Assembly: GCA_023053575.1 (NCBI GenBank)
Contig: JAKZAP010000004.1
Coordinates: forward strand, 19,417,624 to 19,481,623
Direction of reading: 5' to 3'
From: Branchinecta lynchi
Lineage: Eukaryota > Arthropoda > Branchiopoda > Anostraca > Branchinectidae
DNA: 64,000 nt
In this document: one piece after another, positions 6,781 to 60,214 of the stretch
Numbering within the stretch: position 1 is the stretch's first letter
Layout of the letters: the number at the start of each line of letters is the position of its first letter
Notes under the pieces: generated by a model
What the model was told of the DNA's origin: nothing
Seen by the model: the letters and a program-made list of their open reading frames with translations, nothing else
Databases searched by the model: none
Made by a program: the position numbers and the translations under genes

Positions 6781-7379
6781 AGAAGGGGGTTGGGCATCGG
6801 TGGACTCATCGGCACATCGGGTTCTACTTGTACGAAAGGAATTAAATTCTGCAAACTTTGTCGGGCGCACCCGGGAAGTTCGAGTCTTATCGGTCCAAGG
6901 CGTTAATTTTACACGTAAGAAATCAAGTTCTGTACAGTCTAGTCGAGCAAAACATAGAACAAATCAAATGCTCGATGGTTTTGTCAGGCGTCTGTATTCT
7001 CGTCAGGTTCTTTCACATAAAAAATCGAGTTCTGTAAATTTGTATCGGGTGCATGCTGAAAGACCACAAGACAACTTATCACACATTGTCAATGGCTGCA
7101 TCTTTGACACAACACAACTCTTCATTCATGCACAGAAATGATTATATACAAATAATACCTTTCTGTATGAGCCATCTTCACTCAGGACTATTCAGCTTGC
7201 CACCAGGTACCTAAGCTACGACAAAAGATCCAGGACACTCTTCCATTACATAGAAATAATATTCCCTAGTTCAGCACAATAGCTGCGACAAATTTTCTCT
7301 ATCTGGATAGTAGGGTATTTTATCCCCGTGGATATTTCTCGAACTGTATGACGCTCGGTCAAGAGCGCACACTGGCCCC
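6781..7379. other. Degenerate satellite edge and unassigned DNA
   Basis: To about 7060 it holds decayed copies of the satellite words (TCGGCACATCGGGTTCT, ACGCAAGAAA-like). A frame near 7050-7140 reads HIVNGC, weakly like the end of a LINE zinc motif, but too short to call. Confidence 0.4.
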
Positions 7380-13700: not shown

Positions 13701-16700
13701 GGACAAGTAGTTGGCCCGGAATCCTGCCCGAGCCGGAAAGTTTGTTAAAAGTAAAAGTTTACTTGAGGTTGATTGGATGTTCGGTAAGAAGGCATGCTGA
13801 ACATTTATGTGAAAGTTATTTTGTACTCGGACAAGTAGTTAGGTGGTAAAATTTGTATTTGTAGTTGATTAAATGTCCGATTTAGGCGCTTCTAAATACT
13901 AAAGTAAAAATATTCATGTTTTTTGGGATCCAGAAACGTAAGTAGAGAGATACCTATAGCATCGCAAAAGTTGTCGGTCTGTCCGTCCGTCTGTCTGTGA
14001 GCACGATAACTCTCGAAGGGAATATAGATGTTTTTATGAAACTTGGTGTGAAGATTCTTTGGGCCAAGAGTAAGGTCGAGTTCGCAGATGGGCTCTGTAG
14101 CCGTATATTTAGGGGTGGTGGAGGTGTTTCAAATTAAGGGGCAAAAACAAATATTTTTTAAAGCTATTGAGATAGCTGATTTAGGGTTAAGGTGACATGC
14201 TGAATCCGAATATGAAAGTTATTTTCTCGCCAGTCAAGTAGTTCACCCGGAATCCGGCAAAAACCAAACACAAAGTTTGTCGACCAGTTTTCGGCTATAG
14301 CAGTCCTTGCCCCTTTATTCTCAAATGAGGAAAATATAATCTTCAAGCGAGGATTTTGTTCAATGAGGATACACTGGTAAAGTACAGGTCAAGTTCGTAG
14401 ATAGGTCCTTTAGTCCTATCTTTAAAGGCAGAGAAGAGGGTTTCGAATTTACGGTAAACACATGCGTGTTTTATAAGCTAATAAGATATTCGTTGAGGGG
14501 GTAAGGAGGTCCGCTGAATCCATATAAATCAATCAGTCAATCTGTGTTATTTTCAACCCTACACTAGGTAAGACGGGCGGGAATTGGAAAAATGAACACC
14601 ATATCTGAACTTAGTTTTGTTGCTGGACAAATAGTTCATCACGAATTCGGCTGAAACTGGAAATTTGGTTGAAGCTCAATGTTGTTCTTAAAATCGTTTA
14701 GAGATTCGGTATCGGGGCAAGGAGACATGCTGAATCCGTTTCTGAACTTTATTTTAACAGTAGAACTCTTCAAGGAATCTGACGAAGACGGAATGGCGAA
14801 GACATGACCCAATTGTTTGAATAATATGTTAGATTTTTGGGATCCCATCGTAACCTTTGGTCTTGTTGATGCTGAACCTATATTTTTAGTGTCGACTCAG
14901 TTGTAAAGGAATTCAATGCAGTCGTGACGTAAGTTAGTGACGTCGCGGGATCTTAGGACCCAACATAGAATTTGATTGTCCCTAGGTCGTTATATAAATG
15001 TAAACGGGACCGGCGCCTCACAGGCCGCTCGGCGCTTTAGATATCTATTAAAATATATATTTACCGATAGGAATAAACTACAGATTTTCGTTTTCTGAGT
15101 TAAAATAGATCAAATGGGTTGACCTCACGCTTGTATGAAATTTCGATACAACTTAGTTTAGACCAGATTTTTCCTCAGTTTTAATTCTCATAGGCTTTTC
15201 AAATACAAATCTGCGTCATCTAACTCTGTAGATGTGTCTGTGCCGTGTGCTTTGCAGTGCGTGTTCACAGAAGTAAGAATGCGGGAAGGTTGCAATATAA
15301 CGATAACGGGGCAAATTCATCTCACTTCTTCTAAGCAATTAAGATGCATGCTGCATACTTGTGGTAAAAAAAACTTGCAGCATTTCTGCTGACGGTTTCT
15401 GAGGTGCACTTCAACCAGCCCGCTCGCTTTATAGGAAACATATGAATATCCCCATCAGATCATGCTACCGATAACGCTCCAGATAGCAACCGCTGACGAT
15501 CTCTTATGACTGGGTATAGCCTGACTGCTATACCTACATGACATCATCATTAACATCAGGAACTGGCGTAACTCGATCATAGCCCCCCCCCCCCCCGCTG
15601 GATTAAGAAAAGGTGACAAGCCTGATTGTAAAACTATAGAGGCATCTCTGTAGTATTAACTGCAGCATAATCCTATACTGCGAAGATTCAGAGATGTCAG
15701 GGACAGACGCACAAGACCAAGCAAGCTGTTTCCACTCCTGACATGGTCTGCTTGGACGAGTCTTGAGTACAGGTTCGAACGTCAAAAGGGAACCATCCAA
15801 ATCTTCATCGACTTAGTTTCTTCATTCGACTCATTGAAGAGAAACATAATTTGGCGGGCAATGCAGGAAAACTGTGTTCTGGAGGAAAGAATTCGCTTTA
15901 CCCATACATACTAGAGCCAGATGAAGTCTTATGTGAGAGGTGGACCGGAGCTGTCAGCGTGGTTCTTGATTGGAGAAGGTGTTCGACATTGTTGCATCCC
16001 CTCGCCAACTCTTTTCGACTTCGTCACTTGGTACTAAGGATCAGGGATAATCACAAGAGTGTGGAAGCAAGCGTACAATTTTCCGTCACAGACCTCAGTT
16101 ACGGCGATGACGCGAATCTCCTCACCGACTCCGTCAAAACCGCACTTTACATGTAAATTAATGTCTCAGCAAGACCGAAGGTCAAACTAGCAGTCTCTAA
16201 CAACGAGACCGAAACCATGAAAACGGGTGTTATGGATAACCTGAATATTCTCCTGGATGGTTTTGTCCCAGCTTCAAATACCTCAGCCCATAACCAACAT
16301 TGAAGGAACGGCGGAAAATGAGACCAGTCACGTTTCTCCTCTACGTGGTCTGTCATTGTACAGCTAAGAAGATCCCATGAGGACGGCCTAAGATATTCAC
16401 CAAAACGGAGAAACATATTTACGAAGCAATTGTCCTGTTGATACGTCTACACGGCTGTGAAGCTTCGCCGCAGAAGCACATTGGGTCTACGTCTTCCATC
16501 CTGCGATCCGTACTCGCAATGAAACGCGAGGATAGAAGGAGTAGTGAGGAAGTGCGAAAACTCGCTGGTGACCGACCAATTCTGTTGGACAGAATCAGAG
16601 CCAGAAGACTAGGATGTTTCGGGCACGTACAACGGCGAACTTAAGATGGTCTATCCAAACGATGCCGTAAGTCCTCCTCTCCCCGGGTGGAAGAAGCGAG

Positions 16701-19700: not shown

Positions 19701-22700
19701 TACACTCAATATGGGTCATACACGTGTGTGCAGCCCTCCCGTAAGTTAGGATTTATGATAGGAAGATTTCAAAGAACTTGCACTAGGAGTTTTGAATTAC
19801 CAGTTTTTTTTTTATCCTAGATTACTGCTGTCCCGTTTGCCTGGTCACATCCCGCAGTGGGGAGCCTTAGCCCTAAGGACACTGACTGGGTCGGAGAAGT
19901 TAAGATTGAGGACACTGGGGTCTATGTCGAGTCGTTGTTTTTGCTGATATTTGGAGGTATCCCTTGGCAAGTAAGTGTGTGAACCCTCAGTCAGTTTTTC
20001 CCTCATCAGCCATTGTCCGTTCGCACCTCTGTGCGTACCTATCCTGTATTTCCACTACACTACTTATATTGTAATGGCAAGGGCATATTGAGGGGGGGGG
20101 GGTCTAGTACTCCAAGCCCTTTTTTGATATCCATGCTCGAATGCTTGGGCTTAATGGCAGGGGTAAGCGTGGTGCTGATAGGATTTGCCGACTCTTTATT
20201 CCCCAGAAGGTTCCGGTGTACAACACTTTCGAAGTTAGTATTAAATACTGGTTTATTCAATTACTGAAGTGTTTTAGTGACTGCGAAAATTTGCGTATTT
20301 ATTTCTTGCTGCAGCCCGATGATGGCCCTTGCCAAAAATGGCAAGAATATTGCTAGAACCAGTCTTAGCTGACTTACCCATTTAGTCTCATTTCTTATAT
20401 TTATGTGCTTGGTTTTTGTCTTGGTCTCTTTTTAAGTGCTTTAATTATGTAGTTAGTTTCTTTGTTTTGTCTTCAGAAAGTGTGTTGAATATGTAGTTAA
20501 TATTTGTGTGTACCATGGCCCGTTGGGCTTTCCGTGTATAGTACATACTTACATTGGAGGAGAGCGGTAAGGGAAAGTTCGTTATGTAAAAGCTTGGGTG
20601 TCCATTGCACAAAAGAGACTAAGAACGACAATCTGGACGCACTATAGAAGAAGAAGCAAACTGATGTCTGGCCTCGGATGTCCACCGGTCCATATTACCC
20701 CCTGTGACTACCAACTCTGCAAGTTAAGGCAACCCCTAGCACAGACCCACCAAAAATACAACTGGTGAAACCGCAAGTAAAATCTACGGAGCGTTATCTC
20801 GAGTCATTTGTTCCCTATTTTGTAAAGTATTTTAACGGATCGGAATTTTGAATTTAAACTGACATGCTCGTGATTATGTTCGTTATCGGTTTGTATTTTA
20901 AAATTGTAACATATATGTGGTTGTTTACGACTATGTTCACCGTGTATGACGATCCACCACTATTTTTGTAATAAGATAACATGGAATTAAACGAATTAGA
21001 AAAGGACGGAAAAGGAAGAAAGACCGGAGTTGTCATTCTTGTGCGAAATGTTTTTTCCTGCCTTTCTCGTATTCTCCTCTCTCATGTCAGTTTTGTGCTT
21101 GGTTTGCTTTACCGTAGAATGTTTGTTGGATTGTTGTTTCTTTTAGGGATATTTCCAAAGAGTCCTAGCCGTACGAACCCCTGGTGAAGCCAGAACGCTC
21201 TCGCTAGCCGCTGGAAGTGTATGTTTGCTTATGTCCACTCCGTGTATTCTCCTTGGTATTGTGGCAAAAGGAACAGGTATGAGTATGTTCCTCTCTTCTA
21301 CTTTAGTCACAGATAGTACACTGTAAAAAAAAATCATGCAGTATTTGCTACTGGGATTGATCTTGCCTCTACTGAGATTATGTCTAAGTCGGATTAATCT
21401 TGTCCCAGTAGAGATAAGATTAATCCCAGTAGCAAATACTGCAGTTAACTTTAATCCTTACTCGAAGAAACTTTTTACAGTGTTTCCTTCTCTTTGCTCC
21501 CCTCTATCCCACTACTTCATAAGTTCTCAGCCTTATTTGCTGAAATTGTTCGCTTGCAATTTCTTCGTGCATTGCTCATATCCCCTGTGTGGGATCCTGT
21601 CTTGAACGCTTGATGTTTCTCCTTTGAATATTAGGATTAAAAGACAGATTTGGTTTTGATAACGACAAAGGAAGAAGAAGACAACGGTAAATCTTAACTC
21701 CTATATTCCAGTATTTATATCCTATTACATGGTTCTGGTTTCGCATTACCCTTCGTAGCAACATCAGAATCTGAAAAATGGCTTTTCTGGCCGGAAAAAA
21801 AGACAATTGGCTGAGTTTTTGGGATCCAAAAACGGAAGTGGAGTGATACCTATGACATCGCAAAAGTTGTCCGTCTGTCCGCACGATAACTCTCGAACGG
21901 ATTGAGATATTTTGATGAAACTTGGTGGGAGGATCCTTTTGGCCAAAGTACAGTTCAAGTTCGAAGATGGGCTCTGTAGCCATATATTTGAGGGTTGGGG
22001 AGGGGTTTCAAATTAAGGGACACAACAAATATTTTTTGAAAGCTATTGAGATAGTCGATTATGAGGTAAGAAGACATGCTGAGCACGATAATGAAAACCA
22101 TTTTCTTGTCGGACAAGTGGTTCGTCCGCAACCGGCAAAAACCAGAAAGTTTGTTAAAAGTAAAAGTTTCATTTGAAGTTGATTAAATGTTTGATTTAGG
22201 GGTAAGAAAACATGCTGAACACGATGGTGAAAACCATTTTCTCGCTGGACATGTAGTTCGTCCGGAATCTGGGAAAAAACGGAAAGTTGGTTAAAAGAAA
22301 AAGTTTCATTTGAACTTGATTAAATGTTTGATTTAGGGGTAAGAAGACATGCTGAGCATGATGGTGAAAAGAAAAAGTTTCATTTGAACTTGATTAAATG
22401 TTTGATTCAGGGGTAAGAAGACATGCTGAGCATGACGGTGAAAATCATTTTCTCGCCGGACAAGTAGTATCAGAAACTACTTATCAAAAAAACCGGAAAG
22501 TCTGTTAAAAGTAAAAGTATCATTTGAAGTTGATTAAATGTTTGATTTAGAGGTAAGACGACATGCTGAACACGATGGTGAAAACCATTTTCTCGCCGGA
22601 CAACTAGTTCGCCTGGAACCCGGCCAAAACCGGAAAATATGTTAAAAGCAAAAGTTGTATCTGAAGTTGATTAGATGATAGATTTAGGGGTAAGAAGAGA

Positions 22701-25700
22701 CGCTGAGACTGTATATGACAATCATTTTTACCCGGACATATAATTAGTCAGGAATTCGGTTGTACCTGCATTTTTTTTAAGTCAGAGTTTTATTTAAAGT
22801 TGATTAGATGTTCTTTATAGGGATAAGGAGATACGCTGGATTCGTTTCTGAATTTTTTTTTTTTTTTGCTGGACTAGTAGCTCGCTCGGAATTCGGGGGA
22901 AACCGCAAATTTGGAAGAAGTAAAGCAGGAAGTTTCGGTCAGTATCGTCAAAATAGATATGGCTTAGAGGTATAGATAGATAGATAGAATATCTGAACGC
23001 GGTTTTCTCTGATGATTAGCTTAGCGAAGACTGGATCTAGCGAAGACAAGACCCAATTGTCTGGATCAAATCTTAGATTTATGGGATCCCATCGACACCT
23101 TTGGTCTTGTTCGATCAGAGAGTAATATTGACACTAGTCGTATAATCTTATACCTGAGTCTGAATCATGTTCATCTTGTAGACTGGCAGTTGGCAGGATA
23201 TCCAGGAAATTTTTCAACTGCTAACGAAATCAAGAGCATCTTGCCCTTAACGCTGGAATACCTGACTCCGGAGGTAAGGCTCGTCTGGTCCTGTTCTTTA
23301 AAGTTTAACCGAAAAGGGCTGGGATAGGACAGTCTTGTCCATCACTCTTGCCCCGCCCATTGCCAGGCCTTATGTTGGGCCTTATGGTGGGGCCATAAAC
23401 AGTTAATGGTGTTTTTTATTTGTATGAATAAGCTGAACTGTACTGAAAAAAAAAACTGAACTGAACTTATTCAGTTAAAGTTTAACTGAAAAGCAAACTT
23501 ATTTTTTGTCTTATTTGGATTCTGCTAAGAGATTTTTTTATTTTCCACTCTCTGCTTTAGTAGTGAGGTTCAGAATATCTGCGGCTGTCTCCACAGCGCA
23601 AATTCTACTATGACGCAGTATGTTTGAATCTGAACACGAACGCGGCTTTTCAGTGGGCAGTGATAAGTTTGGTGAAAACTGCTTAGTGCCTGAACAAAAA
23701 AAAAATCATAAATCTTTTTAGTCTAGCATACGACACAGGTAGTACCACAAATCTGACAGCGAAATTCCACTATTTGAGAATTGATTATTAGTTAATAGCA
23801 GAACAACGAAGTAACGCATTTTCATGGGGTCTTCAAGCCTCCTAAAGTGAATAAGTGAGGGGTAACAAGACTGTCCCATCTCTGCCCTTATGAGTTAAAC
23901 TTTAAATTGGCCTGAAGACCCGCTGAAAATGCGTTACTTCGTTGTTCCGCTATTCACCAATAATCCATTGTCAAATAGTGGAATTGTCGTGTGATTTGTG
24001 GTACCTCTATGCGCTTGTATTTTTTTTTGTATTCCTTACCTGAAAGATTTATGATTTTTTTTTGTTCGGGTACTAAGCAATCTTCACCAGTCTCGCCACT
24101 GCCCACTGAAAAGCCATGTTTGTGTTCATATTAAAATTTTCTGCGTCATAGAATTTTCGTTGTGGGGACGGCCGTAGATATCTTGAACGTCATAGCTCGA
24201 GCAGATAGTGGAAAATAAGAAAATCCCTTTGCAGAATCCAAATAATTCAGTGTATTCAGTTAAATGACACACAAACAAGTTGGCTTTTCTGTTAAACATT
24301 AAGGTTTAACGGAAATTCCCAACTTATTTTCTTATCATTTAATTAAACACACTAAATCATTTTGAGTGTTTGAAGCGACCCAATGAAAAATCTATCTCAA
24401 AATAGTACTAGGAAGTAGTACGAAAAAGTAGCATGCAGTACTAACGATGCTACTACATGCTTCTTCTTCAAGGCTACCGTATTACTGCATACTACTATAT
24501 GCTACTATTAGCAAGACCGGATGCTACTATGGCAAGACAGGATGCTACTGGATACTACTACATAAGATTGGATCAGTCTGAGGTACATTAAATGATAGTA
24601 TTCTTTGCTATTACATAGTATTACATGCCATGTTTTCGTACTACTACCATACTACTACGCAGGCTACAAATTTTTCATGGGGGAGTTTTTAATTTTTCCC
24701 TATATGCCCTAGTAGTGACGTTTAGAATCTCTACGGCCGTCCCTACAACGTAAAGTTCCACTATGACGCGGAAAATTTGAATCTCAACACAAACGCGGCG
24801 TTTCAGTGGCCAGTGGTGAGGTTGGTTTGGTGAAGATTTTGGCTCAAACAGATATGGACGAACGTCAAGCACTTTATCGTCACCTTCGCCTGTCCCTCAA
24901 TCAATTTCATTTACTTTTTTATTTTTATCTTTCCCAAACCGGTTTCGTCAAGCTTACAACACAGGTAAAAGCGCATAGAGGTACCACAAATCCCACAGGG
25001 AAGTCCACTATCTGAAAATCGATTATTCTTGTATATATAGTGGAGCAACGAAGTAACGCATTTTCATAGGGTCTTCAAGCCTATTTGAGTGATTAAGGGA
25101 TAGGTAAACTGGATTGTCTTATCACGGCCCTTTTCTGCTAAAGTTTAAGCAGAAAGGGCATGACAGTGTATTTTTCTTTACGAAACGATGTGTTAAGTTC
25201 GGTAAATAGAGCGATGGGCGTGTCAGGTAGCGGCCTAAAGTCAGCATGAATAACTTCAAACAGATTAGTGTTTTCAGAAATTCCGAAACTTTTCGATAGT
25301 AAGTGTGCCTAAAGAAAACTCGGGGGAAAAGCTGTTGCACGATATTTTGGGACACCAAGGAACTAAAAGCAGGAATAGGCGACTGTTGTCTCTGGAGCTT
25401 TAATTTCTTGCTTTACTCAAACCTGATGAGGGATTGCACTTTCTCTCTTCGGGAGAAGCTTCGCTGACTTTGGTCATAACCAGACCAGACTGAACGGCTG
25501 TGCGAGATTTTAAGCCAAAACAAAATCGTTCATTTTTTCCAGTGGGTGTCGATCTTCGGACTAGGGGCTGTCAGTGCTGCTATTATGTCGTCTGCGGATT
25601 CTGGAGTTCTCTCTGCAAGTACTTTGCTCGCTCAAAACATTTACAAGAACCTCTTCTACCCTCAGGTAAGAAACCCAGACTGTTGTTTTGTGTTTGGGCT

Positions 25701-35486: not shown

Positions 35487-36642
35487 TTTTTGGGATCCCA
35501 AAACATAAGTGGAGGGATACCTATGACATCGCAAAAGTTGTCTGTCTGTAAGCACGATAACTCTCGAGGGGAACGAGATATTCTGATGAAACTTGGTGTG
35601 AGGACGTTTAGGTCAAGGGAAGGGTAGAGTTCGTAGATGGGCTATGTAGCTCAACATTTAGGGGCGGGGGAGGGGTTCAGTTTAAGGGGCGAAAAAACAA
35701 ATTGTAAACAGCTAATGAGTCGATTTATGGCGAAGAAGACGTGCTAAACATGAATATGAAAACCATTTCCTCGCCGGACCAGTAGTTCGCCCGGAATCCG
35801 GCCAAAACCGCAAAGTTTGTTAAAAGTAAAAGCTTTACATAAAGTTAATTAGGTGTTCGATTCAGGGGTAAGAAGACATGCTGAACATTTATATCAAAAT
35901 CTTTTTCTTGTCGGACTTGTCTTTTCCGAAACCGGAAAAGTTGTTGAAAGTAAAAGTTTTATCTGAAGTTCGATTGATGGGTAAGAAGATATACTAAATC
36001 CGCCTTTGACAATCATTTTCTACCCGGACAAATAGTTCGCCCGGAATCCGGTTGAAACCGGAAAATTTGTTAAAACTTAAGTTTTATCTGAAGTTGATTA
36101 GATGTTCGATATAGGGGTAATTTGATACGCAGCATTCTTTTTTGAGCTTTAGTTTTTGCCGGACAAGTAGTTCGCCCAGAATCCAAAAACTGCGATTTGG
36201 CAGAAGTATAAGGCAGGAAGATTTGATCAGTTTGTCAAAGTAGATATGACGTATAGCCTAGGAGTAAATAGACACATGGGGAATGCATAACTGAACTTGG
36301 CTTTCTCGGGTGATTTACCATTGACCTTCTTCTGTTTCTAAATCTTTGTAGTAAAAATGTTCAAGGAATTTGGTGAAGACCAGATATCTACAAGACAAGG
36401 CCGTATCCAGGGGGGGGGGGTAGGGGATTGACCCCCCCCCCCCCCCCCCCGAAACATGCAAAAATCATCAATTTTATAGGCTTTTCCCTCTGATCTATGT
36501 CTTTTTTTGTACTTTTTTGTCAGCCTGCAGGCAAACCCCCCCCCCCCCCCCCCCCCCCCGAAATAAATTCCTTATACTGGCCTGCTACAAGACCAAATTG
36601 GATATTAAATTTTTAGGATCCCGTCGAAACCTTTGGTCTTGT
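35487..36642 (+). mobile_element. P-family element P7 with a nested 189-bp insertion
   Basis: TTTTTGGGATCCCAAAACAT start; ATGACATCGCAAAAG; four 137-bp-type subrepeats; end TTTTTAGGATCCCGTCGAAA..TTTGGTCTTGT. Insertion at 36397-36585 is described separately. Confidence 0.88.
36397..36585 (+). mobile_element. hAT-like MITE, second type, in P7
   Basis: Flanked by perfect 8-bp duplications TACAAGAC (36389-36396 and 36586-36593). Ends AAGGCCGTATCCAGGG and ...CCTTATACTGGCCTGC are imperfect inverted repeats. Interior holds two long C runs around TTTATAGGCTTTTCCC. Confidence 0.8.
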
Positions 36643-44300: not shown

Positions 44301-47300
44301 GCACATTAAATGATAGTATTCTTTGCTACTACATAGTATTACATGCAACTTTTTCGTACAACTACCATACTACTACGCAGACTACAAATTTTTCATCAGG
44401 TTTGCATAGAATTTGAGTCAACTTTTGGGATCTGACTGGGTGATGCTTCTTGTTCTTCCCTAGGATCACCGGTGGTTTTCGGACTTAGTCATATAGAGTA
44501 TGTACATAACCTAAATTACGCTGTGTTTGTGACCCGAATTTCTCGCAGGGAGCATACCCTTGCGTACGACTCGGTGGGGTAATATTTCTGTTCTGTTCGG
44601 TGTACCAGTAGCTTCACGTCTCTCTTTTCCAGATAGTCGCTGTTCCTTTTGCCTGGAATGATCCAGCTGTCGGAAGCCTCAGCCCAAAGGATACAGACTG
44701 GATTGGAGAAGTAAAATCTGCAGACGTTGGAGTGTATATCGAGAATATTTGTCTGATAGTTCTGGGTGGAATTCCTTTTCAGGTATGTCTTCTCCTCTCC
44801 TTTCAATCAATCAATCCGTTTACTGCGCCGTAAGATTATAACAAGACCAAAGGTTTCGATGGGATCCCAAAAATGTTAATATTTGCTCCCGACAATTCGG
44901 TCTTGTAGATATTCGGTCTTCAACAGACTTCTTAAGTATTTTTACTTTTAACATTTAAAAACAGGTTAAGGCCAATGATAATAATGGGAGAAGACCAAGT
45001 TCGTATTTGATAGTGCAAACCGGATACGCCAGCTGAATTTCAACAAGTTCAGATATATTCAGATATCCGTTTTGCGCTGTCAAATATTCAAATATGGATT
45101 CAGCATATGGTTTACCCTATAGCCTACGTCGTATCTTCTGCCTTGCTTACTTCTGCCCAACTTCAGGTTTCGGCCGGATTCCGGAGAAACTGTATGTCTG
45201 GCAAGAAACTAAAGCTCAAAAACGAATTCAGCGTGTCAATCTTCAGATTAAACTTTTACTTTTAAAAAAATTTCCGGTTTTGCCCGGATTCCGGCCGGAT
45301 TTCCTCCCACCAAGCTTCATCAAAATATCTCTATCCCTTCGAGAGTTATCTTGCAGACAGACGGACGAACGGACAGACGGACAACTTTTGCGATGTCATA
45401 GGTGTCCCTCCACTTGTGTTTTGCGATCCCAAAAAGGTAAATAAACGCTTAACAAGAAATGCAGAGGGTACGTAAAATCTACAACGACAGCGAAAGATAA
45501 TAAATGCAAAACAAGAGATACACAACGAAACACGAAAATAACAATAAATCTACTGCATTAGCTGGCCATTGGGCATTGGGGCAGGAAGGCGGTTGAATGA
45601 TGGCAGAAGCTTAACAGTTGGGTGCGGAATAGGGTTTCATCAGTATTATACAGTAGAGCTATGTATGCTTATTTGGACGTTTGTTGACTTCAAACTTTGC
45701 CATTTTCATGAACTTGCTGTGAAGTAGGTAATTAAGGGCCGCTGAAAACCCTGAAAAGGTATTTTGGATCTTCACTCTACCATTGTGCTCAAAACTCCGC
45801 TGTTCACATTTAAGTAACTGTTCAAATAAGCATACATCTACTATAAGTTCACTATATGGCTGAAAAGCGAAAATCTGCTTACAAGCCCCTTTTCACTTTA
45901 ACCGGTTTAAAGACACGATGAAAATCAATAAATCAATCAAATTTATGACCAAATAGCTGAAAGCTAGAACATGAATACATTATTTACGAAATACACAGAA
46001 AACGAAACAAATTAACTAATACACTTACAAGATATGACCAGAAATAAGTGATGTGAAAGAAATTGGGCAGAAGAATCAGCAGGATATGGAGAAAACTGAT
46101 TGCCAGTGTTCTCTCGGACCGACGCACAGACGACGGAAGGGGGGAGGGTTAGAAAATGCGTTGCGGCATTGCTTTGCTATTTATGAATAACGATCTTACG
46201 TGTGCAAAGTTCTTTCAAGTTTGTGGTAACTACAGATACCCAAGAGCATCAAGTTGCCTGATGACAGTAAACTCTTTGGGGTCTGTTCTGAGTTATATTG
46301 CAACAGCGTCTGTGATTTTCTGTTGTTCGCTATTTGTGGAACAAGAGCACTTCTTCGATGAAATTCAAATTTTATGGTCTACCTGTGATTCTCGCCATGC
46401 TGGGATCCATATTCTCAGAATCACTACAGAAGCCTGTTGTGAAAAACAAAATCCTTCAAAGGTTAAAATAATTAATTATATTCACGATACAAATTTAGTC
46501 TGGCTTTTCAGTTAAACTTTAAGTGGATCTTGTAAAAGGCTCATACTATCTTTATTTTAGAGTTACTTCCAACGAGTTTTGGCTGCTCGGACACCCAGGG
46601 ATGCCAGTATCCTTTCATATGCGGCTGGTGGCGTCTGCCTGCTCATGGCTTTACCTTGCGTCTTATTGGGAATCGTAGCCAAAGGAACGGGTAAGTTCTT
46701 GTGGAATCTCCAGCAAGCCAATTCGTTACTAAAGGATCAAAATTAATCTCGAAGAGTTGTGGCGAAAGCTGCAAAATGCCGAACAATTCATCCCACGTGT
46801 ATAGGACATCGTATTCGCTTTCATTCGTTGCATATTCACTAAGTACATAAGTACGTTCAAAGAGCATGCAGTTTACTCTAGAGGACCTCAGCCAGCGTCA
46901 CTAATCATTTTAGTATCGGAGTTCGTCCTCCTTGGGAAGGGCGTATACCAAAACTGGAACGATAGGCCTACAGAGATCTTAGAGCCGGATGTCGATATTA
47001 GCCAGATGACCGGTAATAGAACTGGAAGAGTATGCAATAGCCTAGATGACCTCAGGAAGCGTCACTAATCGTTTTAAATCGGACTTCGCCCTCCTTCGGG
47101 AGGACTTGTACTAAAATTGCTACGATAGGACTAAATAGAAAATTAGAGCTGAATGTCGGTATTAGCCAGAGGCTCGCATGATCGGTCATGTCCCTATCCC
47201 TACCGTTTTTTGTTTTTTTTTAGATTGGCACATGACAGGATACCTCGGAAATTTCACGACCCCGGATGAAATCAAGAGTGTTTTGCCTTTAACGCTCGAG

Positions 47301-50300
47301 CACTTGACCCCACAGGTAAGGATATATGGTAAAGTAGTTACTTTTCGTCATTAAGGGAGTTCTCTAGTCCCATTACACAGATATTTACGTACAGACAAAA
47401 TTTTTAATTAACGTCACTCACTCTCTTCAAATATCCTTCCACTTCTCATACTCATTGTAGTTTTTCATTTAGTGATATCTGTAAATCCCCTACATAAATT
47501 TGAATTGAGTCCTTCTGGAGAAAATGGTCCATATTTCCTACGTCGACCTTAAAAAATTTATTCTTGTCCCACGAGTTTAGGCTCGGGGGCCTCTGCCGGC
47601 AACTAGCTGACGTTTCATCTGATACTTCACGATACTGTACTTCAACTTACCGAGCCTTGCCGCCGAGTTTGTAAATACAATGGGTATCGATTAGCCTACC
47701 AGCTTATCTGGTAATGCGTATAACTCTACTGGCTTTAAAAACTTCTTCCTGTGATTTGCTTCTCTGTGTTTGGTTGATGTTTACTCCTTATTGTTGTCTC
47801 TTTTTAACGGGTTGCACACCAAGCTCTCAAATAAAATCTATGGATGGCAATAAAAGTCCGTCGAGAAAATCCTCAGGGATTTCAGAGATTGCCGAGACAG
47901 ATTTTTATTGAATTTGTTTCGAGTTTCGACAACACTAAAAACTTTACTGCAATCAAATCCTTAGTCCCATGTGTGAAATAGTGTGCTGAACTAACCGAAT
48001 ACTTTTTCTCTTAGTGGGTGTCAGTCCTTGGTCTTGGAGCTGTCAGTGCTGCAATCATGTCGTCAGCCGATTCAGCAGTGCTCTCTGCAAGCACACTGCT
48101 GGCGCAAAATGTCTTCAAGAACTTGCTATATCCCACAGTAAGTGTTAGAGTTTACAATGCCTTCAAGCAACCACGAGTACTGTACCTGACGTGCGCGTGG
48201 CTTTCCCTACGCTCACCCGTCAGTTTGCGAAGTCCATCAGTCTGATGCATGGGTGGGTCAAGCGGGCGAGTTGATTTGGTGGACGAAATGACAGCTGTGT
48301 CGAATGGCGTTTGTCACGTCCAACCTGTCGTTGTCCTATATTTGTTGGCATGTTTTGTATCTGGTCATCACGCCCCAAGACGAGAAAAGATAGTGCCGTG
48401 TCTTTAAATCTATAGTTCCAAACAGTATAAAAAGTACGTCTTCCGCCAATGACCTTGGATTCTTGGTCGACAACTTATCCTGTCTTTAACCTTACAGGCG
48501 TCCGACAAGTCAATTCTCATAGTTACGTGGCTCTCAATTTTGGTCGTCACTTCTGTCTCTATCATGATGGCACTGTCGGTGAAAAGTATTCTAGGAATGG
48601 CGTAAGTAGACTTTGGGCTTATCGATGAGGCTTGGCTTGGTGATAGGCACCTTTCCTCAAATCACTTATTTCCTCCCTTTCCAGACCCGCTATAGAGCAA
48701 ACGACTTTCCTCATCTTTTTCAAGTCACCCACCAGAACCCCAGACCGGAGTAGTTTTTTCTGAATAGTTTCTTCTATTGTTATTCTGTGAGTCCTCAACG
48801 CCATAGTAACATATTTAAGCCTGCTTCTGGTTAGCATCCTGAAAGTACGATTGTGCTTTCGTAAATAGGATATTGAATAGGCCTACTTAATATAACAAGA
48901 CTAAAGGTTTCAATGGGATCCAAAAAATGTTAATATTTCTTGGACTTGGATTATCCAGAATTTCCTAAAACATTTTACTATTTATCACTAGTCAGCCAAT
49001 TGAAAATAAACATAAATGATACCATATGGTTTTTTGTTGGAAAATTATGGCCAAACGAATCAACTACAGGCGAAACTGTTACTCTTTGCACATTTTCTGG
49101 TTTGGGCCGGATTCCGGGTGAACTATTTGTCCGGCGAGAAACTAATTTTCGTACACGGATTCAGGATGTCTCCTTACCCCTGTATCGAACCTCTGATCAA
49201 CTTCAAGTAAAATCTTTGTTTTTAACAAATTCCCGGCTTTGACCGGATTTCCGGTGAACTGAATACATCATTTCTCCTAACGTCTATATCGAACCTCTAA
49301 TCAACTTCAAGTAAAATTTTACTTTTAAAAGTTTTCCGGTTTTTGCCCGATTCCGGACGAACTATTTGTCCGGTGAGAAAATAATTATCATACAAGGATT
49401 CCATGCCTGCTTACCAGTGAATCAATATCTCAATAGCTTTTTATACAATATTTTGTTGGTCCCTTAGTTTGAACCCCCACCCCAAAAGATAGAGCTACCC
49501 AAAATAGAGCTATCTCTGAACTCGACCTACTTTGACCCCACAAATCCACACACCAAGTTTGAACGAAATATCTCGTTCCCTTCTAGAGTTATCGTGCTTA
49601 CAGACGGACGGACAGATGTATAACTTTTCCGATGTCATAGGTGTCCCTCCACTTACGTTTTGGGATCCCAAAAAGGAAATAATACAGTATCAAGAACTCT
49701 TAAGTTCTACGATGGCAGCATACATTAGTTCATGACCCTATGGTTTCTGAGTAGCCTTCTTATTTTCAGGTACCTGTGTTCTGATCTCGTCTATGTCATA
49801 CTGTTTCCTCAACTCCTTCTTGTTGTCTACTGTCCAGATATCTGCAATTCATATGGAGCGCTTGCCGCGTACATCATCGGAGCCATCCTCCGCGTAATAG
49901 GTTTGTAATAATTATTCGCTATTTTCGGACAAACCGTACTATTTACTGTGTTTAGATGGGAAAAGATTTTTCAGTTTCGTGCAAGCGCATCTGACCAGAT
50001 CTTTGAAGTTAAGTGTATGCCGTGGTAAGAACCCCATTCCAAAACCTTTCTCGCTTTGAAACCAGGCTGTAAGTAAGTAATTTATTTATGACCCGCCATT
50101 TTGAAAAAGCGGAGTAAATGAAGAATATAAACAAAACACATTAACACACAGAAAAAGACCAGGAAGTGTGTGCCTTCGTTCTTAATTGATGGTTGCATAT
50201 TGTATGCTCCTATTAGAGGGAGATTTTTTTGCTGTAATACCAGTGTAAATTAATCTCAGAGCGTACTGTGCCTTATGGGTGTCCCAACCAGGGCGTCACT

Positions 50301-51201: not shown

Positions 51202-52016
51202 TCGTCAGTGAATCTGTTTTTATCTGATCGTAATATATTTTCGTATGTCATGTTTGTTTTGCTACAATTAGGAAAGGCTGTTAGTAGGTCTTCTCTAGCT
51301 GTCTTAGAGCTGTCCATCCAGGAGGATCTTCCTGGAGGCATGGCCGGTACTGGGGCTGTAAACATCAGATAGTGTTGTGAACTGCTTTAAGTACTTTTAC
51401 TTCAGGTACTACAAATTTCCTGGAGTACTTGATACTTATTATCACTTTGAAGTTTAACCGAATAGGGATGGGTAACTAGACATGAAAGTCTGTTTACCCA
51501 TCATTTCTTCGCTTAAATAAGCTAAAAAACTTGATGGAAATGCGTTACTTCGTGGTTCCCCTATTCATATTGGATGAAGGTTTTCTTTTGGGGTTTGTAG
51601 TAGCTCTGTGTGCCTATACTTCTATGCTTGAAGCATTTAGCAACTATAACGGTATTGCCGATAAAATAATGCAAATTCGTGAGTTGTTCTGGTCATTTCT
51701 AAACAAGTCCTTTGAGATAAGAATGCACATGGGCCCTTGTTAATCAAGAAAATATATCTTTTTGTACAAAGTATAAGTAAGTAAGTAATTTATTTCTAAC
51801 CCGCCATTTTGAAAAGCGGAGTAAATTAAAGAAAATAAATAAAATACATAAACACACATGTCATGTATGCTATTTTTGCACTTGCCTGTGATGATGCGCA
51901 CTTTAAGGTCTCTAGATATTGATTAGAGATCAATTTCTATAAGCAAAACCCCTGAGTCAACAACGAGGATGGGCTCATCGGGATCAAAATGTGTATTTGC
52001 TCAAAATATTTTTTAT
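51202..52016. other. Gene B-C intergenic DNA
   Basis: Holds a TTTGAAGTTTAACCGAATAG end (about 51448) with AATGCGTTACTTCGTGGTTC, a fragment of the TTAAAGTTTAAC family, and a CCCGCCATTTTG tail repeat at 51776-51860. No gene. Confidence 0.5.
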
Positions 52017-52790
52017 GGCACTTGCCCTTCGGACAGGTGCCATATAGCGATCGCAATTTCTGTCGGTCGGTCTGTCCAGGCTTTGCTAGTTCGGGCACTT
52101 CCACATAAGCTAGGACGATGAAACTTGGCAGGCGTATCAGGGACACCAAATGATTAAGTTGGAAATAGTCACTTTCCCTATCCGAGCATCGGGGAGGGGG
52201 GGGAGCGGAGGGAGGGGGAATCCGGAAAAATGGTTTTTTTTTTTACTTACGACCGAGTGATCAGATCTTATTGAAACTTGATATATAAAAAGACCTCGTG
52301 TCAGAAACGTCCCATTTTTAATCCGGACCGGATCCGATGACATTGGGTGAAACTTGGGTGGGTGAACAAGCACAAGTCCTAGATACGTGACTGACATAAC
52401 CGGACCGGATCCGCTCACTGTGGGGGAGGGGGGGGCGAATTTAACTTGATGGACGGGAAGAGGAGATGTTAGAGGTGCGAAATTTGTGTCCGAGTCATAT
52501 TCGGACACAGTTGGGGGGGGGGGGAGTCCTGGAAATGGTTTGACTCGCATAGGGGTTAAACGAGTGGAGTGATTTGAAAGAAAATTGAAAGTAGAGAGAT
52601 CGTATGGTGAAGATGGTATGTTTAGGGTTCGGACCGGATCCGAGCACGGTGGGGAGGGGTACCAGAGTTTCTGGGAAAATGGTCAGATTTACTTCCTCGT
52701 TTCTCACACTGCCTACTCGTAACAAGTGCCATATGAGCTCGTAGCTCTTATTTACTTTATTCACTTTTCGGATGAGATGTGAACTTTAAG
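52017..52790 (+). repeat. S-family repeat copy with terminal hairpin
   Basis: Begins with hairpin GGCACTTGCCCTTCGGACAG GTGCC, then CGATCGCAATTTCTGTCGG, CTAGTTCGGGCACTTCC, ATGAAACTTGG; ends AAGTGCCATATGAGCTCGTA. C/G runs near 52195 and 52510. Confidence 0.72.
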
Positions 52791-53446: not shown

Positions 53447-53820
53447 ACAAGACCAAAGGTTTCGATGAGATCCCGAATATTGAATATTTATAGGACTTTT
53501 TGATCCAGAAAATCGGATTTTGCAGATTCCTCAGTCTTCACCAGACACCTTCAACATTTTGCTATTTATCCATAACCCACCTCTTGAATATGTACAAAAA
53601 GTAAGGTTACCGTTTTGGAGTGTTTAGCAACTTACGGCTAAACAACTAATCAGATGAAAACCTTTCAATCCAGATTTCCGAATTTTGCCTGCTTATCTGT
53701 CATAGAAATAAAGTTAAAAATTCAGTTCAGCATGTCACCTTACCCCGATACCGAATTTCTAGTCGACTTTGAACGAAATTTCCAGTTTCGGCCGAATTTG
53801 GGTGAATCAAACCCTTCGAC
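53447..53820 (-). mobile_element. P-family element P10, truncated
   Basis: ACAAGACCAAAGGTTTCGAT then GAGATCCCGAATATT; one or two subrepeats; broken at a C run near 53829. Confidence 0.75.
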
Positions 53821-54129
53821 GGCTTTGACCCCCCCCCCCCCCCCGCCCGACGTGACAGACTTCCATGTGTCAGCCGCCATGACTAAAACCAAAGAATAGG
53901 ATAAAAGGGTCGGGTAGGGATTGGTGTTTTCCGGAAATTGGTCGATAAATTTTCATTAAAACTGTTCACCAGACAGTTGTCGGGATGCATTCTTCCTTTT
54001 TCAGCCAGTAAATGCCGGTTGGGACTTTCAAGATACTAAACTGATCGCATACACTTTTTGTTTATCTTTAGTATTTTCGAAAGTTGCAACAACGTGTCTG
54101 CTCACTCTATATCGACTATATCGTTGGGT

Positions 54130-54361
54130 TTTAGAATTTCATGCTAAACTTCGCGATTCCGGGCGAACTATAATTGTCCGTCCAAAAATATAATTTTCAA
54201 TTTTTTATTCAGCGTGTCCTCTTACCCTAAAGTCGACCATCTAATTAACTTCAGATTCAACTTTACTTTTTACAAATTTTCCGGGTTTTGCCGGATTCCG
54301 GGTGAACTACTTGTCCGGTGAGAAAATAAATTTCATATTCGGATTCAGCATGTCTTCTTAA
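54130..54361 (-). repeat. P-family fragment P11
   Basis: TTCCGGGCGAACTA, CGTGTCCTCTTACC, CGGATTCCGGGTGAACTACT; no ends. It is cut by an S-family copy. Confidence 0.7.
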
Positions 54362-55080: not shown

Positions 55081-55133
55081 CCACATCTGAGCTTGGTTTT
55101 TGGTATCCAAAAATGTAAGTGGAGGGATGCCTA

Positions 55134-55419
55134 CCCAATGAAAAATTATCTCAAAATAGTACTATGAGGTAGTACGAAAAAGTAGCATGCAGTACTAACG
55201 ATGCTGCTTACTACATGCTTCTACTTCAAGGCTACCGTGTTACTTCATACTACTACATGCTGCTATTAGCAAGACCGGATGCTACTGGATACTACTACAT
55301 AAGATTGGACCAGTCTGAGGCACATTAAATGATAGTATTCTTTGCTATTACATAGTATTACATGCAACGTTTTCGGATTACTACCATACTACTACGCAGT
55401 CTACAAATTTTTCATCGGG
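55134..55419 (+). mobile_element. ACT-rich MITE copy 3 (286 bp), in P13
   Basis: CCCAATGAAAAATTATC ... CTACAAATTTTTCATCGGG with TA on both sides (55132-55133, 55420-55421). The intact P sequence reads CCTATGAC at this point, so the target duplication is TA. Confidence 0.92.
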
Positions 55420-56078
55420 TATGACTTCGTAAAAGTTGCCCGTCTGTCAGCACGATTACTCACGAAGGGGAAGAGATATTTTTTTCAAACTTGGTGTCAG
55501 GATCCATTGGGTCAAATTACAGGTCAAGTTCGTAGATTAGACCTGTAGCCCATTTTAGGGGTGTGGGAGGGGTTTAAAATTAAGGAACGAACAACTTTTT
55601 TTTAAACAATGAGATAGTCGAATTTGAGGAGATATTCTGAATCCATATCTGAAACTTCTTTTCTCGCCAGTCAATTAGTTCGTCCGGAATCCGGCCAAAA
55701 CCGGAAAATTTGTTAAAAGTAAAAGTTTTATGATTAAATGTTCGTCTGAAAGGTAAAAAGACATGCCGAATCCATTAATAACAATCTATTTGTACCCGGA
55801 CATATAGTTCGCCCGGGATCCGGCCGAAACCGGAAAACCTAGAATAGCTAAAGTTTATCTCAAGGAGATTAGGGGTTTGATGTAGGGGTAAAGAGATATG
55901 CTGAATCCGTTTTGACATTTTTTGTTTAGCCGGGCAAGTAGTTCACCCGGAATCCGGCGGAAACCGGATAGTTGGTAAAAGTAAGGCTGGAATTTTCGAT
56001 CAATTTCTTGGAATTAGATGTAATTTATATAGGAGTAAACACACATGCTGGATCCATACTCGAACTTGGTATTCTCAG

Positions 56079-56383
56079 CAGGGGCGTCACGACTGGGGGG
56101 GGACGCCCCCCCCCCCCAATGCTGTCGGCCAGTCGGTAAAAAAATAACCGAGTCGTCGCGAAGCGCCGCGATTTTTCGTCAAAACAGTTGATTTTTTTCA
56201 TGAAAATTGTCGGTCTTTATGAAAATTGGTCGATTTTTCGTCAAAATAGTCGATTTTTTTCGAAAATGTCATTTTTTTGTTGAAAACGGTCCTTTTTCTG
56301 CACAAAAAGTCGGTAAAAAATTACCAGCCAGTCGGTAAATGCCTCGTCCCCCCCCCCAAACATTTTGGCTAGTAACGCCTCTG
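56079..56383 (-). mobile_element. hAT-like MITE copy 4 (305 bp), in P13
   Basis: CAGGGGCGTCACGACTGGGG ... TTTTGGCTAGTAACGCCTCT G, flanked by identical 8-bp ATTCTCAG at 56071-56078 and 56384-56391. Opposite orientation to copies 1 and 2. Confidence 0.93.
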
Positions 56384-56707
56384 ATTCTCAGATGACTAGC
56401 CATTGGAATTAATCTGATTATATATTTTAATACTAAAAATGTTCAAGGAGTCTGGCTAAGACCGGATATCTAGAAGACGGAATTGTCTGGATTAAATATT
56501 CAATTCTTGGTATCCCATGGAAACCCTTGCCCTTGTTCTCATTTGATTTGTTGTTTGGCCGTAGCCTAGGTGGTAAAAAAAACTCCAAAGCGGTAACATT
56601 GTTTTGTACATATTTAAGCAGTTGATTGTGGATAAATGGCAAAATGCTAAAGGGGTATGGCGCAGACTCCGAAACCTACAATTGTCTCGATGTCTGGACG
56701 AAAAAGA

Positions 56708-57050
56708 GCCAAGGTTTCGATGGGATCCCAAAAATCTTTCATTTGATCCAGGTATTGTTTTCGCCAGATCCAGTTCTCGCCAGGCTAATCATCTGAGAAA
56801 ACCAAGTTCACTTATACCTCTATAAGCCATATATGTTTTGACGATACTGACCGAAACTTCCTGCTTTACTTCTGCCAAATTTCCGGTTTCGGCCGAATTC
56901 CGGAATAACTACTTGTCCAGCACAAAAGAGGAAAGCGTATCTTCTTATCCCTATTAAGAACATTTGATCTAATTCAAATAGAACTTTAACTTATACCCAT
57001 TTTTCCAGTTCGTGTTCATATGTCTTCATACTCCATAATCCACTGCTGAA
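56708..57050 (-). mobile_element. P-family element P16, truncated
   Basis: AAGGTTTCGATGGGATCCCA AAAATC start, CTGAGAAAACCAAGTTCA, one or two subrepeats, then lost before an A run at 57052. Confidence 0.8.
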
Positions 57051-57125: not shown

Positions 57126-58266
57126 ACAAGACCAAAGGTTTCGATGGGATCCCAAAAAGTCAATATTTGATCCAGACAATTGGGTCTTGTCTTTGCCAGA
57201 CTACTTGAACAGATTAATATTAAAATTCAGCAACAGATAAGGCCAAATAGCTAATCAGCTGAGAAAACCAAGTTTAGATATGGATTCAGCATGTGTGTTT
57301 ATCCCTATAAGTCATATCTGTTTTGACGAAAACTTCCTGCCACTTCTGACAATTTCCCGGTTTCAGCCGAATTCCGGAACTACCTTTCCGGCGAAAAAAG
57401 AAAGTTCAAAAACGAATTCAGCGTATCCCCAATATTGAACATCTAATCAACTTCAACTAAAAATTTAACTTATAACAAATCGAACTATATGTCCGGGTAA
57501 AAAATGATTTTCATACACGGATTCAGCATCTCTTCTTACCCCTGAATCGGATATCTAATCAACAACAAATATAACTTTAACTTTTTCCGGTTTTGGCCGG
57601 ATTCTGGGCGAAGTAATTGCCGGGGTAGAAAATTGTTTTCACACAAGTATTCAGCATGTTTTCTTACTCCTAAATCGAACATCTGATCAACTCCAAATAA
57701 AACTTTTACTTTTAACAAACTTTCCGGTTTTGGCCGGATTCCGGACGAACTAATTGTCCGGCAAGAAAATGGTTTTCACCATCGTTTTCAGCATGTCTTC
57801 TTACCCCTAAATCGAACATATAATCAACTTCAAATAAAACTTTAACTTTTAACAAGCTTTCCGATTTCGGCCGGATTCCGGGCGAACTACTTGGCCGATG
57901 ACAAAATGGTTTTCACCATCGTGTTCAGCATGACTTCTTACCCCATAATAGACTATCACAGTATATGCTTAAAAATATTTCATTTGCCCCTTAATCTAAA
58001 CCCCTCCCCCACCCCTAAATGTAGGGCTACAGAGCCCATCTACGAACTTGACCTTACTCTTGACACAAAGAATCCTCACACCAAGTTTCATCAATATATC
58101 TCATTCATAAATATTCTTTCTCATTCCCTTCGAGAGTTATAGTGCGCACAGACGGACGGACGGAAAGACGGACAGACGGAAAGACGGACAGACGGAAAGA
58201 CGGACAGACGGACAACTTTTGCGATGTCATAGGGATCCCGCCACTTACGTTTTGGGATCCCAAAAA
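57126..58266 (-). mobile_element. P-family element P15 (full length, 1.14 kb)
   Basis: ACAAGACCAAAGGTTTCGAT ... CACTTACGTTTTGGGATCCC AAAAA; about four subrepeats; ACGG/AAGACGGACAG microsatellite at 58147-58215. Confidence 0.93.
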
Positions 58267-58798: not shown

Positions 58799-60214
58799 AC
58801 AAGACCAAAGGTTTCGATGGGATCCCAAAAATTCAATATCCGATCCAGACAACTGGGTCTTGTCTTAGCCAGATCCAGTCTTCGCCAGACTCCTTGAACA
58901 TTTTTACAATTAAAATTCAGAAACAGATTAAGGCCAAATAGCTAATCACCTGAGAAAACCAAGTTCAGATTTGGATTCAGCATGTGTGTTTACCCCTATA
59001 AGTCATATCTGTTTTGACGAAAACTTCCTGCCAATTTCCCGGTTCCGGCCGAACTCCAGAACTACTTGCCCGGCGAAAAAAGAAAGCTCAAAGACGAAAT
59101 CAGGGTATCTTCTTTCCCCAGTAATGAACATCTAATCAACTTCAAATAGAAATTTAGCTTATAACAAATTTTCCGATTCCAGCCCGATTGCGGTCGAACT
59201 GTATGTCGGGGTAAAATACGATTGTCACACAGGGACTCAGCATCTCTTCTTACCCCTAAATCGCTTATCTAATCAACTAGAAATAAAACTTTGACTTCCA
59301 ACAGTTTTCCGGTTTTGGCCGGATTCCGGACGAACTACATGTCCGGGTAGAAACTTGTTTTCACATAAGTGTTCAGCATGTCTTCTTGCCCTAAATCGAA
59401 CATCTAATCAACTCCAAATAAAACTTTTAATTTTGACAAACTTTCCGGTTTGGGCCGGATTCCGGTCGAAATACTTGTCCGTCGAGAAAATAGTTTTCAC
59501 CATCGTCTTCAGCATGTTTCCCTACCTCTAAATCGAACATTTAATCAACTTCAAATAAAACTTTTACTTTCAACAAACTTTCCGGTTTGGGCCGGATTCC
59601 GGGCGAAATACTTGTCCATCGAGAAAATATTTTTCACCATCGTCTTCAGCATGTCTTCCTACCCCTAAATCGATCATCTAATCAATTTCAAATAAAACTT
59701 TTACTTTCAACAAACTTTCCGGTTTGGGCCGGATTCCGGGCGAAATACTTGTCCGTCGAGAAAATAATTTTCACCATCGTCTTCAGCATGTCTTCCTACC
59801 CCTAAATCGAACATCTAATCAACTTCAAATAAAACTTTTACTTTCAACAAACTTTCCGGCTTTGGCCGGATTCCGGGCGAACTACTTATCCAATGACAAA
59901 ATGGTTTTCACCATCGTGTTCAGCATGTCTTCTTACCCCATAATCGACTATCACATTAGCTGTTTCAAAATATTTTGTTTGTCCCTTAATTTGAATCCCC
60001 TCCCCCACCCCTAAATGTAGAGCTACAAAGCCCATCTACAAACTTGACTGGTCCGACGACCCAACGAACCCTCACACCAAGTTTCATCAAAATATCTCAT
60101 TCCCTTCGAGAGTTATTGTGCTTACATACGGACGGACGGACGGACGGACGGACAGACGGACAACTTTTGCGATGTCATAGGTATCCCTCCACTTACGTTT
60201 TGGGATCCCAAAAA
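58799..60214 (-). mobile_element. P-family element P14 (full length, 1.42 kb), best example
   Basis: ACAAGACCAAAGGTTTCGAT start; at least seven subrepeats, of which those at 59450, 59587, 59724 are spaced exactly 137 bp and nearly identical (TTTCCGGTTTGGGCCGGATT, TACTTTCAACAAACTT); unique segment CCCTAAATGTAGAGCTACAA; (ACGG)n at 60126-60162; end CTTACGTTTTGGGATCCCAA AAA. Confidence 0.95.

What the first reader, a model, noticed from the sequence alone, without database searches (positions are those of the whole stretch)
58799..60214. P family: a probably undescribed non-autonomous element with GGGATCCC ends, 137-bp core repeats and ACGG microsatellite
About 15 copies share fixed end modules, a variable number of 137-bp subrepeats, one unique module and a tetranucleotide run. 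This is the layout of bivalve pearl/HINE (Helitron-related) elements, but the sequence ends are distinctive. Core number varies from one to seven or more, so it may seed satellite arrays.
Basis: partly seen in the sequence, partly recalled or inferred. Interest (0 to 1): 0.75.

Follow-up and report, generated by a model that had tools for sequence, protein, structure and literature searches.

The report
Giant family of rolling-circle jumping DNA

Summary
The window has 15 GGGATCCC sites against 0.51 expected and nine copies with both ends, including 58799-60213. The genome has 38,343 left and 38,153 right ends within 3 mismatches; reversed controls give 0. The family covers 9.9% of a 200-kb sample, nearer 7% of the genome after scaling by end counts.

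It is a non-autonomous Helentron (HINE) read backwards. On the minus strand: T-run, palindromic subTIR TTTTGGGATCCCAAAA, GTCC microsatellite, unique module, 137-bp cores, 3' subTIR, weak hairpin ending CTTGT. It sits between T and T (42 of 46 copies) without target duplication, with empty sites in A-runs.

Rep-helicase-endonuclease Helentrons exist (two long open frames, one shorter), but their 3' end is that of a sibling family (19,383 ends) also present in the window. No gene-bearing element with GGGATCCC ends was found; several decayed loci were not read.

Satellite seeding is not supported: 2.81 core motifs per end genome-wide, 2.65 in the sample; cores descend by position. A new member of a known kind, notable for size and missing partner.

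The parts
58799..60213 (-). Finding's copy of the P family, 1,415 bp; Helentron 5'->3' runs on the minus strand
   Evidence: both ends found; 96.6% identical over 1,424 aligned columns to the copy in L023
60198..60213 (-). 5' end: T-run and palindromic subTIR TTTTGGGATCCCAAAA
   Evidence: sequence; exact in 31 of 46 full copies
60180..60187 (.). GGTATCCC, imperfect inverted repeat beside the 5' subTIR
   Evidence: sequence
60128..60161 (.). (ACGG)n = (GTCC)n microsatellite
   Evidence: TRF, 8.5 copies; a run of three or more GTCN in the first 130 bases of 41 of 46 copies
60077..60088 (-). GATGAAACTTGG motif, shared with the sibling family's 5' module
   Evidence: within 2 mismatches in 41 of 46 copies; also in the sibling 5' end
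59957..60213 (-). 5' module (end, microsatellite, unique module)
   Evidence: 94.2% to the 245-bp consensus
59100..59947 (-). central array of 137-bp cores, first and last partial
   Evidence: seven matches to the core; TRF
58799..58968 (-). 3' module
   Evidence: 98.2% to the 170-bp consensus
58819..58830 (-). 3' subTIR (TTTTGGGATCCC on the minus strand)
   Evidence: exact in 38 of 46 copies
58799..58816 (-). 3' tail CGAAACCTTTGGTCTTGT, small imperfect hairpin ending CTTGT
   Evidence: tail identical in 35 of 46 copies; each of six pairs kept in 43-46 of 46
10141..11102 (-). P copy, both ends
13921..14866 (+). P copy, both ends; a second 5' module lies at 12899-13099
21817..23110 (+). P copy, both ends
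35488..36642 (+). P copy, both ends
44841..45434 (-). P copy, both ends, short
48895..49673 (-). P copy, both ends
55098..56536 (+). P copy, both ends
57126..58265 (-). P copy, both ends
8706..9210 (+). P fragment: 5' module and cores, no 3' end
53447..54335 (-). P fragment: 3' end and cores
56704..57010 (-). P fragment: 3' module and cores
52010..52753 (+). copy of the sibling HINE family whose 3' end matches that of the Helentrons found
   Evidence: 5' end 83.8%, 3' end 97.4%

Best explanation
P is a HINE: a non-autonomous rolling-circle element of the Helentron group. A Rep/helicase/endonuclease made elsewhere nicks at the T-run ends, copies the element as a single strand from the subTIR end to the hairpin ending CTTGT, and inserts it between two T's without duplicating the target. 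The array of 137-bp cores rides along as passenger sequence and is inherited as a block from master copies. Shown: ends, target, lack of target duplication, empty sites, copy number, descent of cores by position, presence of Helentron proteins in the genome. Inferred: rolling-circle mechanism, supply of the protein in trans, role of hairpin and subTIRs.
For: Sharp ends (65 left and 56 right ends); A|A on the + strand in 42 of 46 copies; longest direct match across the insertion is 1 base in 37 of 46, as in randomly re-paired flanks (38.9 of 46); paralogous empty sites with an A-run at the junction in five of the seven usable pairs printed; subTIR, microsatellite and motif counts; near-equal end counts 38,343 and 38,153; sibling family of the same layout with a Rep (PF14214), PIF1 and C-terminal Exo_endo_phos protein whose 3' end is also a hairpin with a three-base loop followed by TTGT.
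Against: No gene-bearing element with GGGATCCC ends found. The terminal hairpin is weak (three pairs, a mismatch, three more pairs of which one is G-T; -1.6 kcal/mol alone) and hardly varies, so there is no covariation. The 3' subTIR lies 20 bases from the end, nearer than the 38-60 given for mite HINEs. Of nine pairs printed, two (L011, L044) are matches of a copy to its own flank beside another P copy and are no empty sites; L047 is offset; L003 is A-rich but not an A-run; the joined flanks lack 3-8 bases that the empty sites have, and the finding's own pair differs by a CTAA unit as well.
Confidence: 0.92

Rival explanations
1. A cut-and-paste DNA transposon (MITE) with GGGATCCCAAAA terminal inverted repeats.
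For: A 12-bp inverted repeat GGGATCCCAAAA/TTTTGGGATCCC is near both ends.
Against: The repeat is not terminal: 20 conserved bases lie outside it on one side only. No target duplication beyond chance. The empty sites show none.
Confidence: 0.03
2. A canonical Helitron derivative (5' TC, 3' CTRR, insertion between A and T).
For: Rolling-circle traits: no target duplication, a 3' hairpin.
Against: Ends are T-run...CTTGT, target is T|T, subTIRs present; definitions from PMC4067079 (passages).
Confidence: 0.03
3. A dispersed satellite: 137-bp arrays spread on their own and P ends are incidental.
For: Many arrays are short: 24 of 48 in sample and window have one or two core hits, some of them in copies without both ends.
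Against: The two ends are equally numerous; core motifs per left end are 107,881/38,343 = 2.81 genome-wide, 53/20 = 2.65 in the sample and 23/11 = 2.1 in the window; longest array in sample and window 960 bp; 2 of 205 cores have their nearest relative in the same element.
Confidence: 0.04
4. P is mobilised by the sibling family's Helentron although the subTIR sequences differ (cross-mobilisation; not exclusive of the best explanation).
For: Its protein is the only Helentron protein with a long open frame found; both families share T-run, palindromic subTIR, GTCC-type microsatellite, GATGAAACTTGG and a 3' end CTTGT after a small hairpin.
Against: HINEs are reported as over 95% identical to their partner in Culex and 98% for DINE-1 (PMC4067079 section 8); here the subTIRs differ. 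P's own partner may be extinct, absent from this individual, or among the unread decayed loci.
Confidence: 0.2

Closest known systems
HINE / Helentron (Metaseiulus, Culex; Thomas et al. 2014, PMC4067079; passages and section 8 seen)
   Same: palindromic subTIRs near a T-run, 3' palindrome, T-T target, no target duplication, optional microsatellite and tandem repeats
   Different: 3' subTIR is nearer the end; hairpin weaker; no partner with the same ends found; end sequences could not be compared (paper's end sequences not seen)
Cg_HINE of Crassostrea gigas and pearl (Vojvoda Zeljko et al. 2020, PMC7492417; parts 1-4 of 7 seen)
   Same: 5' subTIR plus inverted repeat, GTCY-type microsatellite, central repeats (consensus 138-181 bp there) in one orientation, 3' subTIR, palindrome, T-rich target; partner also unresolved there
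   Different: core is 137 bp, and sequences could not be compared (figures not held); one family alone covers about 7-10% here, against 0.85% of the assembly for the arrays, without flanks, of 13 clusters there
DINE-1 of Drosophila (as described in PMC4067079)
   Same: subTIR, inverted repeat, microsatellite, 3' stem-loop, TT target
   Different: DINE-1 subTIRs are not palindromic
Tsp elements of sea urchin (Cohen et al. 1985; cited in PMC4067079, paper itself not read)
   Same: called DINE-1-like in that paper
   Different: not compared

Membership tests
HINE / Helentron | insertion between T and T, T-rich target | tested here: met
   A|A on the + strand in 42 of 46; A-run at the junction in five of seven usable empty sites printed
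HINE / Helentron | no target-site duplication | tested here: met
   compared with re-paired flanks
HINE / Helentron | subterminal inverted repeats | tested here: met
   5' palindrome exact in 31 of 46, 3' subTIR exact in 38 of 46
HINE / Helentron | palindrome (5-10 bp in the mite families) near the 3' end | tested here: inconclusive
   small hairpin imperfect and nearly invariant; an 8-bp pairing ACAAGACC/GGTCTTGT exists in the consensus, its inner arm exact or with one of four single mismatches in 31 of 46
HINE / Helentron | microsatellite and central repeats (common, not obligatory) | tested here: met
HINE / Helentron | autonomous Rep/helicase/endonuclease partner with the same ends | tested here: inconclusive
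   three Helentron loci, and remains at C14:2.02 and 13.51 Mb, have the sibling 3' end; no P end in the 1.25 kb read after C13:20.35 and C22:4.65 Mb; loci at C1 (four), C5, C16 and C22:5.71 Mb not read
canonical Helitron | 5' TC, 3' CTRR, A^T target | tested here: not met
cut-and-paste MITE | terminal inverted repeats and target duplication | tested here: not met
satellite DNA source | long arrays of the core outside the element | tested here: not met
   in the assembly only, by motif counts and in 264 kb of sample and window; unassembled arrays not testable
catalogued Repbase/Dfam family | sequence match | not testable with these tools
   libraries not available

The most novel reading that the evidence does not exclude
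P is an orphan HINE that amplified to about 38,000 copies by borrowing the machinery of the sibling Helentron, whose subTIR sequence differs; the enzyme would then read structure (T-run, palindromic subTIR, small hairpin, CTTGT) rather than subTIR sequence, which would also explain HINE families in oysters whose partner could not be found.
Probability: 0.18. Interest if true: 0.6.

Novelty: new member of a known kind. Interest (0 to 1): 0.36.

Why it matters
One protein-less family with ends at about 38,000 places makes up some 7-10% of this genome. Beside it stand Helentrons with long open frames and their own HINE family. In oysters the partner of HINEs is an open question (PMC7492417, part 4; PMC7992393 found no autonomous element, passages), so this genome offers a matched pair (the sibling family) and an unmatched one (P) to test what Helentron enzymes recognise. 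Against surprise: in oyster, too, Helitrons are the most abundant transposon superfamily.

Tried and rejected
Rejected: cut-and-paste MITE, canonical Helitron, satellite source (see rivals). L029, whose P end is followed by foreign sequence, first looked like another interior; its sequence reads as a nested inverted-repeat insertion (my reading). An interior shared by L045 and the window's inverted end at 60872-60914 is put down to neighbouring P cores (my reading). tblastn of the Helentron piece against the other loci over 500 bases and the window gave no hit at E 0.01. Six library searches, seen as listings, on HINE/Helentron and on the end strings gave no description of this family by title or abstract start. 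Passages of PMC11136912 on oyster satellites added nothing on this family. The organism was not identified; a COX1 search did not complete. One script timed out and one stopped with an error after its results were printed.

Rows dropped: one exact duplicate copy (L027) before all counts on 46; L025 and L026, copies of one segmental duplication, are both kept in the 46. L026 was left out before the count on 205 of 211 cores of at least 110 bp. Four of 46 copies without a 200-bp match were left out of the identity medians. L001-L030 were chosen as exact end matches on C1, so they favour young copies; they are 23 of the 46 full copies; 14 come from the 20 stretches and 9 from the window.

Full report
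OBSERVATION. The element at 58799-60213 is real and belongs to a large family. GGGATCCC occurs 15 times in the window against 0.51 expected. The 32-base left end occurs 38,343 times in the 575.7-Mb genome with up to 3 mismatches, the 25-base right end 38,153 times, and the patterns read backwards 0 times. Nine window copies have both ends and at least six are partial. In 20 stretches of 10 kb that I placed at round coordinates on C1-C20 (200 kb), two reference copies cover 9.9% of bases (bootstrap over stretches 6.3-14.0%), and 16.4% of the window; the references read backwards give no hit. The stretches hold 20 left ends, where the genome count would give 13.3, so they are rich by chance, or the count is low; scaled, the family is nearer 7% of the genome.

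ANATOMY. On the minus strand it begins with a T-run and the 16-base palindrome TTTTGGGATCCCAAAA (31 of 46 copies exact), then a GTCC microsatellite (41 of 46), the motif GATGAAACTTGG within 2 mismatches (41 of 46), a unique module, the 137-bp cores, a 3' subTIR TTTTGGGATCCC (38 of 46 exact) and the tail CGAAACCTTTGGTCTTGT (35 of 46 identical). The tail can form a small imperfect hairpin with a three-base loop (-1.6 kcal/mol by itself); a longer pairing of ACAAGACC with the terminal GGTCTTGT is also possible in the consensus, its inner arm being found in 31 of 46. Conservation falls from about 1.5 bits to under 0.3 bits outside AACAAGACC on the left and GGGATCCCAAAAA on the right; the outermost A on each side may be element or target.

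TARGET. On the + strand the base on each side is A in 42 of 46 copies, i.e. the insertion lies between T and T in Helentron orientation. The longest match between left and right flank is one base in 37 of 46, as in re-paired flanks (38.9), so there is no target duplication. Joined flanks of copies lying in other repeats match uninterrupted copies of those repeats; nine pairs were printed. Two (L011, L044) turned out to be a copy's own flank beside another P copy. Of the other seven, five (L008, L036, L039 and the window copies at 10141 and 58799) have a run of A's at the junction, L003 is A-rich with a C, and L047 is offset by a few bases. The joined flanks are 3-8 bases shorter than the empty sites, which fits A's taken up at the ends of the element, or a small deletion; the finding's own copy also lacks a CTAA unit.

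AGE AND CORES. Copies of 1,395-1,460 bp are the youngest (median 93.4% to the 5' module consensus, 14 copies) against 84.5% for the other 28; the consensus leans to young copies, so this is a rank, not a date. The finding's copy is 96.6% identical to the one in L023. Of 205 cores, 124 have their nearest relative at the same position (counted from the 5' side) of another element and 2 within their own element, so arrays are copied as blocks and not homogenised in place. The core motif occurs 107,881 times in the genome, 2.81 per left end, against 53/20 = 2.65 in the sample and 23/11 = 2.1 in the window; the longest array in sample and window is 960 bp. Satellite seeding is therefore not seen in the assembly. 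Unassembled arrays cannot be excluded.

PARTNER. Helitron_like_N (PF14214) has 9 matches in the genome (11 candidates scored). Three (C4, C13, C15) lie in frames of 2,787, 2,783 and 1,438 codons with PIF1; the C15 frame lacks the first 61 positions of the Rep domain. The C-terminal 482 residues, read in C4, carry an Exo_endo_phos domain (PF14529 3e-11, PF03372 4.7e-7) and match all three loci over their whole length at 100% as rounded, C13 scoring slightly lower: a Helentron protein. The three loci are 100% identical over 1,577 bp from just before the frame's end, and the match to both other copies stops at the same base, after CAAGTGCCATATGAGCTCGTAGCTCTTGTTTTT. This is a hairpin GAGCT-CGT-AGCTC followed by TTGT and T's; like P, it ends CTTGT. 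Its subTIR differs from P's. The next element there starts TTTTTATGGCACTTG..., microsatellite, GATGAAACTTGG, which I read as the 5' end of the same sibling family. That family has 19,383 3' ends and non-coding copies with both ends, one at window 52010-52753. Other Helentron remains: C14:2.02 Mb is an older copy with the sibling 3' end; C14:13.51 Mb (pieces 55-62% identical) ends in the same 35 bases as the sibling; C22:4.65 Mb and C13:20.35 Mb show no P end in the 1.25 kb read after them; C1 (four), C22:5.71 Mb, C5 and C16 loci were not read. The result is that no P-ended gene-bearing element was found, not that none exists; the search scores only the best candidates.

HOW IT WORKS. Most likely P is copied by a Helentron protein in trans: nick at the T-run, displacement of one strand from the subTIR end to the hairpin, insertion in a T-T site. 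The mechanism is inferred from the group (PMC4067079, passages and section 8; PMC7492417, parts 1-4 of 7), not shown here. Whether the sibling Helentron moves P is open; published HINEs match their partner closely, but in oyster no partner could be assigned.

NOVELTY. The traits met place it in the HINE kind; the 3' palindrome and the partner are the two tests left inconclusive. I could not test whether this family is catalogued. The size of the family, its recent copies and the presence of Helentrons with another 3' end are the points of interest.

On re-reading the calls I scaled the genome share down, took two self-matches out of the empty sites, marked the 3' palindrome inconclusive, and noted that one of the three Helentron frames is shortened.

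Noticed in passing
window 52010-52753; 3' ends at 2252-2291 and 2720-2759: Copies of a second HINE family (subTIR GGCACTTG) whose 3' end matches that of the Helentrons found in this genome.
   Followed up: yes
G000 C4:9637463 to about 9645826 (upper limit estimated from frame length), C13:6.006-6.015 Mb, C15:24.840-24.844 Mb: Rep-helicase-endonuclease Helentrons, two with long open frames and one shortened, identical over the 1,577 bp of DNA compared: apparently recent movement.
   Followed up: partly
window 4518-6785: Tandem array of units of about 105-152 bp, about 2.2 kb, with no match to P modules.
   Followed up: partly
window 12899-14866: Two P 5' modules in the same orientation but one 3' module: a tandem or nested copy, one of them without its 3' end.
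   Followed up: partly
window 60824-60914: A P 5' end and a P 3' end in opposite orientation, 8 bases apart, with no interior: a rearranged remnant.
   Followed up: no
L025, L026, L027 (C1:1.930-1.952 Mb): The same P insertion with the same flanks at three places about 9.24 kb apart: a tandem segmental duplication.
   Followed up: no
window 18771-19039: Inverted repeat with 112-nt arms, 92% complementary, 45 nt apart: probably another transposable element.
   Followed up: no
L011, P copy from position 1501 and its right flank: A second P 3' end in the same orientation starts a few bases after the first copy, as if T-run ends attracted further insertions.
   Followed up: no
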